A stretch of 64,000 nt of DNA. Origin: an uncultured Pelagibacteraceae bacterium. GTDB lineage: Bacteria > Pseudomonadota > Alphaproteobacteria > Pelagibacterales > Pelagibacteraceae. This document shows, in pieces, positions 12,396 to 14,510 of the stretch. Location: the NCBI GenBank assembly GCA_902557385.1, contig CACDZF010000002.1, forward strand, positions 1-64,000, given 5' to 3'. Each line of letters opens with the position of its first letter. Position 1 is the first letter of the stretch. The translations under genes were made by a program, and so were the position numbers. Below the pieces are notes generated by a model, which saw only the letters and a list, made by a program, of their open reading frames with translations, was not told the origin of the DNA and made no database searches.

Positions 12396-13400
12396 CTAAT
12401 AATATCCTTTTACAAACTTTATTAAATAATCCAACATTTGTGGATTAGTTTTGGGTAATACTCCATGCCCTAAATTAAAAATATAAGGATGATCTTTAAA
12501 GATATCTAGATACCTTTTAGCCTCAATTTTTAATTTTTCTTTGTCTGTTAATAGAAATTTTGGGTCTAAACCACCCTGCACAACTATGTCTGTTTTTTTA
12601 ATTATTTTTTCTGGATTTGTTTTATAGTCAATATTAATTACATCTGGTTTAATTATTTTACAATATTTTTCGTAATTTTTAATTTCTCTTGGAAAACATA
12701 TAACAGGTACTTTATATGATTTAATAAAATTGACTAACTTTAAAGTTCTATCATAAATATAATCTTCTATATATTTATTTTCTAATAATCCCGCCCAACT
12801 ATCAAATATTTGAATAATTGTTGCACCATTTTTTATCTGGTTTTTTATATGAATCTTTAAAAATTTATCTAATATTTCAAATGTCTCTTTAATTAAAATT
12901 TTATCTTTAAAAAATTTTTTATTTAAATTCCTCTTAGGAGAACATTTATTAATCATATAAACTAACAGTGTCCAAGGAGCTCCAACAAACCCAATTAGAT
13001 CTTTATCATTAACTAACTTACTTTTACTTACTTTTTTTATTGATTTATAAACAGGCAATAATTTTTTAGAAAATTCTGAATCTTTAATTTCACTTATTGT
13101 TTCTAAGTTTAGACTATTTAATTCAGGTCCAAAATTCTTTTTAAAAATAACTTCTTGTCCAAGACCATAAGGAACCATTAATATATCAGAAAAAATTATC
13201 GCAGCATCCAAATCAAACCTTTTAAGTGGTTGCAGTGTAATCTTTGACGACAAATTAACATCTAAACATAATTTAATAAAATTTTTATTTAATTTTCTTA
13301 TTTTTCTAAATTCAGGTAAATATCTACCAGCCTGTCTCATAAACCAAATAGGTTTACTACCCACCTTTTTATTTCTTATACATTCTTGAATAGGAGTCAT
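12396..13400 (-). CDS. hemE: Uroporphyrinogen decarboxylase
   Basis: Decarboxylates uroporphyrinogen III to coproporphyrinogen III. 334 residues with the invariant KPIWFMRQAGRYLPEFR (residues ~17-33), the IFSDILMVPYGLG substrate-site Asp region, and GFVGAPWTLLVYMI. The C-terminal FNLGHGVLPKTNP signature is also present. It is the first leftward gene beside the 282-base gap taken to be the replication origin; hemE flanks the origin in Caulobacter and several other alphaproteobacteria. Confidence 0.97.
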   Translation of the reverse strand: MTPIQECIRNKKVGSKPIWFMRQAGRYLPEFRKIRKLNKNFIKLCLDVNLSSKITLQPLKRFDLDAAIIFSDILMVPYGLGQEVIFKKNFGPELNSLNLETISEIKDSEFSKKLLPVYKSIKKVSKSKLVNDKDLIGFVGAPWTLLVYMINKCSPKRNLNKKFFKDKILIKETFEILDKFLKIHIKNQIKNGATIIQIFDSWAGLLENKYIEDYIYDRTLKLVNFIKSYKVPVICFPREIKNYEKYCKIIKPDVINIDYKTNPEKIIKKTDIVVQGGLDPKFLLTDKEKLKIEAKRYLDIFKDHPYIFNLGHGVLPKTNPQMLDYLIKFVKGYY

Positions 13401-13463
13401 TTAAACATTAATAGTTTATTTTAGTTTTAGTATTATATTATGTTAATAAAGGTAATAATTTAT

Positions 13464-13481
13464 TATCAACAACTTATACAT
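13464..13481. repeat. Origin-region 18-bp direct repeat, copy 1
   Basis: TATCAACAACTTATACAT, repeated 203 bases to the right at 13667-13684 as TATCAACTACTTATACAT (one mismatch). It contains a DnaA-box-like TTATCAACA that starts one base earlier, and a second TTATACAT half. Two near-identical copies at the two ends of the gap suggest initiator-protein binding; this is inference. Confidence 0.6.
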
Positions 13482-13570
13482 ATTTTATTAACAAATAAAT
13501 CTTATTAAAATTACAATATATTGGCTTATTTGAAGCGCTATTTAATTTTATTATATTAAATGTATATTGT

Positions 13571-13586
13571 TTATTAACGTTGATAA
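13571..13586. repeat. Imperfect palindrome of two overlapping DnaA-box-like sequences
   Basis: TTATTAACGTTGATAA is symmetric at 14 of 16 positions around AACGTT. Each arm is a one- or two-mismatch variant of the DnaA box, in opposite orientation. It lies near the middle of the putative origin. Confidence 0.5.
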
Positions 13587-13666
13587 TTATGTTTATAAAA
13601 TTAATGTTTTACAAAAATAATAAAAAAAAATTTTTAAAATAAAAAGTAATTATAATAATATTTAAA

Positions 13667-13684
13667 TATCAACTACTTATACAT
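13667..13684. repeat. Origin-region 18-bp direct repeat, copy 2
   Basis: TATCAACTACTTATACAT, one mismatch from the copy at 13464-13481. It overlaps the first two bases of the ppsR start codon (ATG at 13683), so a protein bound here would also cover the ppsR translation start and probably its promoter region. Confidence 0.6.
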
Positions 13685-14510
13685 GAATAATACATATCAA
13701 ATTTACCTAATATCAGACTCTACTGGAGAGACGCTAGATAGAATTTTTTTAGCTCTCAAAGCTCAGTTTAAAAATTTCAATTACAAAATACATTCATATT
13801 CATTTATAAGAACACAAAATCAAATATCTAAAATAGTTGATATTTTAAATAATCAAACAAATTCAATAATACTTTATACAATAGTTGATGTTGATCTTGC
13901 TAACTTTTTATTAAAAAAAAGTGAAAGATATAAAATTCCCTGTTTTAGTGTTTTGGGAGACTTAATAATTAATTTTTCAAAAATACTTAATCAAAAGGCA
14001 ACACATGTACCCAGTGGTCAACATACTTTAAATGAAGAATATTATGATCGAATCGATGCAATACAATTTACAATGAATCATGACGACGGTAATTCGATAA
14101 ATGATTTAGAGAAATCAGACGTTATATTATTAGGAGTTAGCAGAACTAGTAAAACACCAACTTCTATTTATTTGGCTAATAGAGGATTAAAAACTTCAAA
14201 TATTCCTCTTGTAAATGAAAATTCAGTTCCAGAACTGCTTAAAAAAAAACCAAAAATATCTTGTGTTGTAGGATTGACCACAGAACCAGCCAGACTATTA
14301 GATCTTAGAAAGAATAGAATGAACTCTTTAAAAGAAAGTGAACCAATTGATTACACAAATTTAGAGACAATTTCTCAAGAAGTAGAGAAAGCTAAACAAA
14401 CCTTTAAAAAATACAATTGGCCTGTTATTGATGTTACTAGGAAATCTGTTGAAGAAACTGCTGCATCAATCATTAAAATTCACGAGATATATAAAAACAA
14501 TGAACAATAA
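13683..14510 (+). CDS. ppsR: PEP synthase / PPDK regulatory kinase-pyrophosphorylase (DUF299 family)
   Basis: Bifunctional ADP-dependent kinase and phosphorylase family that switches PEP synthase or pyruvate phosphate dikinase off and on. 275 residues. It begins IYLISDSTGETLDRI, the family hallmark, and has the P-loop-like GVSRTSKTPTSIYLANRG at about 151-168 and VGLTTEPARLLDLRKNRM. The C-terminal INVT-like stretch appears as VIDVTRKSVEETAASI. It is the first rightward gene beside the putative origin, as in Caulobacter, and overlaps maf. Whether the target here is PpsA or PpdK cannot be told from this window. Confidence 0.92.
   Translation: MNNTYQIYLISDSTGETLDRIFLALKAQFKNFNYKIHSYSFIRTQNQISKIVDILNNQTNSIILYTIVDVDLANFLLKKSERYKIPCFSVLGDLIINFSKILNQKATHVPSGQHTLNEEYYDRIDAIQFTMNHDDGNSINDLEKSDVILLGVSRTSKTPTSIYLANRGLKTSNIPLVNENSVPELLKKKPKISCVVGLTTEPARLLDLRKNRMNSLKESEPIDYTNLETISQEVEKAKQTFKKYNWPVIDVTRKSVEETAASIIKIHEIYKNNEQ

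What the first reader, a model, noticed from the sequence alone, without database searches (positions are those of the whole stretch)
13401..13682. Putative replication origin between hemE and ppsR
Seen: the largest gap in the window, with several DnaA-box-like 9-mers, an 18-bp direct repeat (one mismatch) at both ends, a near-palindromic box pair TTATTAACGTTGATAA, and a 49-base tract with one G and no C. Genes on both sides run away from it. Known: in Caulobacter the origin lies between hemE and the same ppsR-maf-aroE-coaE-dnaQ run. Inference: this is oriC, with non-consensus DnaA boxes (TTATCAACA / TTATTAACA), possibly adapted to a low-GC genome. The second direct repeat overlaps the ppsR start codon, which could couple initiator binding to expression of a PEP-metabolism switch.
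Basis: partly seen in the sequence, partly recalled or inferred. Interest (0 to 1): 0.7.

Follow-up and report, generated by a model that had tools for sequence, protein, structure and literature searches.

The report
SAR11 chromosome replication origin
The 282-base gap is almost certainly the spot where this ocean bacterium (a SAR11/Pelagibacter relative) starts copying its chromosome; it sits in the place already known from related bacteria, so the finding is right but not surprising.

Summary
The gap 13401-13682 between hemE (-) and ppsR/COG1806 (+) is the chromosomal origin (oriC) of a SAR11 (Pelagibacteraceae) genome.

In 109 relatives the gap keeps its place and length (261-289 bp). DnaA boxes occur there at 9.5 per kb against 0.17 per kb in the flanking DNA. 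They sit in a rigid register: one reversed box, then forward boxes 22, 33 and 44 bases on. In a complete relative (G012) this gap is the only 300-bp stretch of the chromosome with three strict boxes. The strand-asymmetry switch falls at hemE/ppsR, and its 90% interval excludes dnaA. The right part of the gap is the least stable DNA in the window.

When ppsR is missing (sister family) or hemE is gone from beside it (genome G158), the gap with its boxes stays. It is therefore the gap itself, not the neighbours, that is conserved.

The suggested coupling to ppsR is not supported as a specific link: boxes also sit at the start codon of maf where ppsR is missing. The CtrA motif is absent from the gap, and a published survey found no ctrA in Pelagibacter. 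IHF-like matches at the two 18-bp repeats are not conserved.

New member of a known kind; modest interest.

The parts
13401..13682 (.). oriC: hemE-ppsR intergenic region, 282 bp
   Evidence: syntenic in 109 relatives, 261-289 bp; box density 56-fold above flanks
13441..13449 (-). DnaA box L1, TTATTAACA
   Evidence: exact match; strict register in 92 relatives
13463..13471 (+). DnaA box L2, TTATCAACA
   Evidence: 22 bp from L1; box with at most 1 mismatch there in 91 of 92 relatives
13474..13482 (+). weak DnaA box L3, TTATACATA
   Evidence: 33 bp from L1; box with at most 1 mismatch there in 66 of 92 relatives
13485..13493 (+). DnaA box L4, TTATTAACA
   Evidence: 44 bp from L1; 75 of 92 relatives; triple array L2-L4 is the only hit in the whole G000 assembly
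13571..13579 (+). DnaA box M1, TTATTAACG (half of the near-palindrome)
   Evidence: aligned block in relatives
13578..13586 (-). DnaA box M2, TTATCAACG (other half of the near-palindrome)
13590..13598 (-). DnaA box M3, TTATAAACA
   Evidence: box at -93 from ppsR in 75 of 109 relatives
13613..13669 (.). candidate DNA-unwinding element: 57 nt with one G and no C
   Evidence: lowest 50-bp and 100-bp duplex stability of the whole window, starting at 13620 and 13582
13666..13674 (+). degenerate DnaA box R1, ATATCAACT here; TTATTAACA is the usual form in relatives
   Evidence: full box at -17 from the ppsR ATG in 71 of 109 relatives
13677..13685 (+). half-box R2, TTATACATG, containing the ppsR start codon, 11 bp after R1
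   Evidence: TTTAT[AT]C-ATG nearly invariant in 109 relatives
13464..13481 (+). 18-bp direct repeat copy 1 (lies within box pair L2+L3)
13667..13684 (+). 18-bp direct repeat copy 2 (lies within box pair R1+R2), 1 mismatch
12396..13400 (-). hemE, left flank
   Evidence: PF01208, E 5.6e-82
13683..14510 (+). ppsR / COG1806 kinase-pyrophosphorylase, right flank
   Evidence: PF03618, E 1.7e-88

Best explanation
This is the bidirectional chromosomal origin oriC. ATP-DnaA nucleates on the left array, one reverse box followed by three head-to-tail forward boxes at 11-bp spacing, that is, on one face of the helix. Further DnaA binds the middle cluster (the near-palindromic pair plus one box) and the box pair at the ppsR edge. 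The oligomer opens the AT-rich tract at 13613-13669, and helicase loads to start two forks, one through hemE and one through ppsR. The boxes are E. coli-type boxes (TTATCCACA) that have drifted to A/T at the tolerant positions 5 and 6 in a genome of about 28% GC. Location, box register, conservation and strand asymmetry are shown here. DnaA binding, melting site and fork initiation are inferred.
For: Synteny and near-constant length in 109 relatives. 9.48 strict boxes per kb in the gap against 0.17 outside. Rigid register of forward boxes at +22 (91/92), +33 (66/92), +44 (75/92) from the first box, no other offset above 3. Only 300-bp stretch with 3 strict boxes in complete genome G012. Triple array found once in the whole G000 assembly, none in the reversed-pattern control for G000. 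Orientation-corrected fourfold T/A skew of G012 switches at hemE/ppsR (gene midpoints 1,261,448 best, 1,262,623 nearly equal; gap at 1,261,949-1,262,209), bootstrap 90% interval 1.245-1.306 Mb, no permutation of 200 reaching the score, opposite switch at about 0.71 Mb. Raw GC-skew minimum plateau 1.23-1.29 Mb, maximum 0.616 Mb. G158: GC-skew minimum at 160 kb, within 20 kb of its ppsR gap at 141 kb. Lowest duplex stability of the window. hemE-COG1806 is the origin in Caulobacter and, by prediction, Rickettsia (PMC1914354), and all 28 sampled ppsR loci from other families of the class have hemE upstream at 360-726 bp.
Against: No experiment exists here. The G000 assembly is incomplete (81%) and its dnaA was not found, so the skew test rests on relatives. 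In G158 the T/A skew was uninformative, 61 kb were not read, and there is an equally dense box cluster at 840,886. Box R1 in this genome has two mismatches (ATATCAACT).
Confidence: 0.95

Rival explanations
1. The gap is only the divergent promoter region of hemE and ppsR, with DnaA (or another regulator) acting as a transcription factor, and the origin lies elsewhere, for example next to dnaA.
For: The gap separates two divergent genes. DnaA is a known transcription regulator in alphaproteobacteria. The sequence just upstream of dnaA in G012 is the least stable 100-bp stretch of that genome.
Against: The gap and its boxes stay when ppsR is missing and maf replaces it, and when hemE is gone and rho takes its place. 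The dnaA upstream region has no strict box cluster. The 90% interval of the skew switch in G012 excludes dnaA at 1.198 Mb.
Confidence: 0.04
2. The 18-bp repeats at the two ends are IHF sites (WATCAANNNNTTR) and not DnaA boxes; IHF bends the origin at both edges.
For: Both copies match the IHF consensus exactly, 2 found against 0.04 expected. The E. coli oriC IHF site GATCAACAACCTG is similar (PMC4285127). HU/IHF-family genes are present.
Against: At the ppsR edge 71 of 109 relatives keep a DnaA box and only 3 keep the IHF form; 99 of 109 gaps have no IHF match at all.
Confidence: 0.07
3. The right-edge boxes exist to couple initiator binding to ppsR expression.
For: Box pair at fixed distance from ppsR; R2 contains the ATG in the 109 relatives; no evident ribosome-binding site precedes ppsR.
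Against: Boxes also sit at the start codon of maf in sister-family genomes without ppsR (for example TTATTAACATG in L199, TTATACATATTTATGAACA in L202). The constraint therefore does not depend on the PEP switch.
Confidence: 0.1

Closest known systems
Caulobacter crescentus Cori (hemE-COG1806)
   Same: Same place between hemE and COG1806; DnaA boxes plus an AT-rich region (PMC1914354).
   Different: Cori has CtrA sites, one IHF site, G-boxes TGATCCACA and weak W-boxes (PMC4285127, PMC4468827). Here there is no TTAA-N7-TTAA motif, the IHF form is not conserved, and the boxes are TTAT[CT][CA]ACA. Pelagibacter was reported to lack ctrA (PMC2877005).
Rickettsia prowazekii origin (hemE-COG1806)
   Same: Same flanking genes in another AT-rich alphaproteobacterium (PMC1914354).
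   Different: CtrA and IHF sites are reported for Rickettsia; no such sites are conserved here.
E. coli oriC tandem DnaA arrays
   Same: Strong boxes beside arrays of weaker boxes in which helical phasing matters, and a neighbouring AT-rich unwinding element (PMC4285127; the comparison of exact 11-bp steps is from general knowledge).
   Different: Shorter and simpler; different gene neighbourhood; Dam/SeqA-type control not examined.

Membership tests
bacterial oriC | cluster of DnaA boxes beyond chance | tested here: met
   3 strict boxes against 0.1 expected; 56-fold density over flanks in 109 relatives
bacterial oriC | AT-rich unwinding element beside the boxes | tested here: met
   lowest 50-, 100- and 250-bp stability in the window
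bacterial oriC | strand-asymmetry switch at the site, opposite switch about half a chromosome away | tested here: met
   in complete relative G012; supported by raw GC skew in G158; not testable in the fragmented G000 itself
bacterial oriC | DnaA binding, unwinding and bidirectional fork start | not testable with these tools
   needs footprinting and marker-frequency data
alphaproteobacterial hemE-COG1806 origin | location between divergent hemE and COG1806 | tested here: met
alphaproteobacterial hemE-COG1806 origin | CtrA sites TTAA-N7-TTAA (Caulobacter, Rickettsia type; not seen in all alphaproteobacterial origins) | tested here: not met
   0 in the gap, 0.9 expected by chance
alphaproteobacterial hemE-COG1806 origin | conserved IHF site | tested here: not met
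   2 consensus matches in this genome, but none in 99 of 109 gaps
alphaproteobacterial hemE-COG1806 origin | cognate DnaA with the box-recognition helix | tested here: inconclusive
   dnaA missing from this incomplete assembly; present in 46 of 61 searched genomes, with RDHTT kept where read

The most novel reading that the evidence does not exclude
SAR11 has a minimal origin of about 270 bp without CtrA sites, whose right-edge DnaA box contains the start codon of the first gene (ppsR, or maf where ppsR is missing). DnaA occupancy could thereby directly gate the downstream operon ending in dnaQ, tying precursor and proofreading genes to the initiator cycle.
Probability: 0.15. Interest if true: 0.5.

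Novelty: new member of a known kind. Interest (0 to 1): 0.3.

Why it matters
SAR11 is among the most abundant bacterial groups, and growth estimates from metagenomes need the exact origin position. A defined, short origin without CtrA sites and with a rigid box register gives a concrete target for marker-frequency assays and for studying initiation control in a streamlined genome. It also shows that the ancestral alphaproteobacterial origin site survives loss or removal of either flanking gene.

Tried and rejected
IHF reading of the 18-bp repeats: rejected on conservation.

CtrA sites: none in the gap.

Origin at dnaA: no box cluster there and outside the skew interval.

Fourfold-site GC skew and intergenic GC skew in G012: too noisy to place the origin.

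T/A skew in G158: uninformative.

Change of box specificity driven by the Pelagibacteraceae DnaA substitution (GG to SN before RDHTT): not supported. The sister family with the normal GG also uses A at box position 6, and the A:C ratio at that position (186:96) is not above what base composition alone would give.

Full report
WHAT IS THERE. The window belongs to a SAR11 (Pelagibacteraceae) assembly, G000, of 0.96 Mb in 39 contigs and 81% complete. The gap 13401-13682 lies between hemE (PF01208, minus) and ppsR/COG1806 (PF03618, plus), followed by maf, aroE, coaE and a dnaQ-like exonuclease. One number is off: the tract with one G and no C is 57 nt long (13613-13669), the longest of its kind in the window.

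IS IT MORE THAN CHANCE. Three strict boxes TTAT[CT][CA]ACA occur against 0.1 expected, and six relaxed boxes against 0.24 expected, in dinucleotide shuffles. In 109 relatives with complete gaps (261-289 bp) the strict box density is 9.48 per kb in the gap and 0.17 per kb in the flanking DNA. Without any prior, the most widespread 9-mer in these gaps is TTATTAACA (94 of 109), and TTATTCACA (83) and TTATAAACA (78) are the third and fourth (strands merged). These genomes are related, so counts are not independent events, but 23 divergent representatives show the same aligned blocks while the rest of the gap varies.

ANATOMY. Left array: box L1 on the minus strand (13441), then plus-strand boxes at +22, +33 and +44. 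Among 92 relatives with L1, a box with at most one mismatch is at +22 in 91, at +33 in 66 and at +44 in 75; no other offset exceeds 3. The 11-bp step places the boxes on one face of the helix. Middle cluster: the near-palindrome M1/M2 (13571-13586) and M3 (13590). Right edge: R1 (13666) and R2 (13677), 11 bp apart, R2 containing the ppsR ATG. The two 18-bp direct repeats are simply the box pairs L2+L3 and R1+R2. Between M3 and R1 lies the least stable DNA of the window, the likely unwinding element (inference).

IS IT THE ORIGIN. G000 is too fragmented for a skew test, so a complete congener (G012, 1,343,202 bp) was read apart from its last 3.2 kb. Its hemE-ppsR gap (1,261,949-1,262,209) is the only 300-bp stretch of the chromosome with three strict boxes. 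Raw cumulative GC skew is minimal on a plateau at 1.23-1.29 Mb and maximal at 0.616 Mb. T/A skew at fourfold sites, corrected for gene orientation, switches at the hemE/ppsR genes (best at gene midpoint 1,261,448; nearly equal at 1,262,623), with bootstrap 90% interval 1.245-1.306 Mb and no permutation reaching the score. dnaA (1,198,465) is outside that interval and has no strict box cluster upstream. In a second complete genome of another genus (G158; 61 kb not read) the GC-skew minimum is at 160 kb, near its ppsR gap at 141 kb; T/A skew was not informative there and a second cluster of three boxes exists at 841 kb.

NATURAL EXPERIMENTS. In the sister family (f2) ppsR was not found by sequence search apart from one weak match among 24 genomes, and hemE faces maf across a gap of 266-276 bp that still carries DnaA-box-like sites, including sites at the maf start codon. 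In G158 the only hemE-like gene lies about 580 kb away and rho faces ppsR across the gap. In all 28 further ppsR loci taken from other families of the class, hemE stands upstream at 360-726 bp. The gap, not its neighbours, is what is kept.

COMPARISON. hemE-COG1806 is the established origin place in Caulobacter and the reported one in Rickettsia (PMC1914354). Differences: no CtrA motif in the gap, in line with the reported absence of ctrA from Pelagibacter (PMC2877005); no conserved IHF site; boxes that keep the E. coli frame but carry A/T at positions 5 and 6. From general knowledge, databases of predicted origins probably already list this place for cultured SAR11 strains; this was not checked.

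SIDE CLAIM. The suggestion that the second repeat couples initiation to ppsR is weakened because such boxes also sit at the maf start codon where ppsR is missing. A general effect on whatever operon starts there is not excluded.

VERDICT. oriC, with confidence 0.95; a new member of a known kind.

Noticed in passing
L253-L268, L099, L100 (DnaA domain IV): Pelagibacteraceae DnaA has S-N (once A-N) instead of the usual G-G just before the RDHTT recognition motif; the sister family keeps G-G and genus g5 (G158) has T-G. Consequence for box specificity unknown.
   Followed up: partly
G012 (L131-L197): At fourfold sites the leading strand has more A than T, opposite to the usual bias, while raw GC skew has the usual sign. 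A published survey calls Pelagibacter skews atypical (PMC2031905).
   Followed up: partly
L198-L207 (sister family f2): ppsR is missing between the origin and maf, with sequence resembling the Pelagibacteraceae right-edge box pair now at the maf start codon.
   Followed up: partly
L224 and L281-L338 (G158): hemE and the two genes between it and rho in the window are absent from beside the origin, so rho faces ppsR; the only hemE-like gene is a distant one (33% identity) about 580 kb away.
   Followed up: partly
window 13531-13536: A TGAAGC-containing block in the middle of the gap, conserved in many relatives, is not a DnaA box; function unknown.
   Followed up: no
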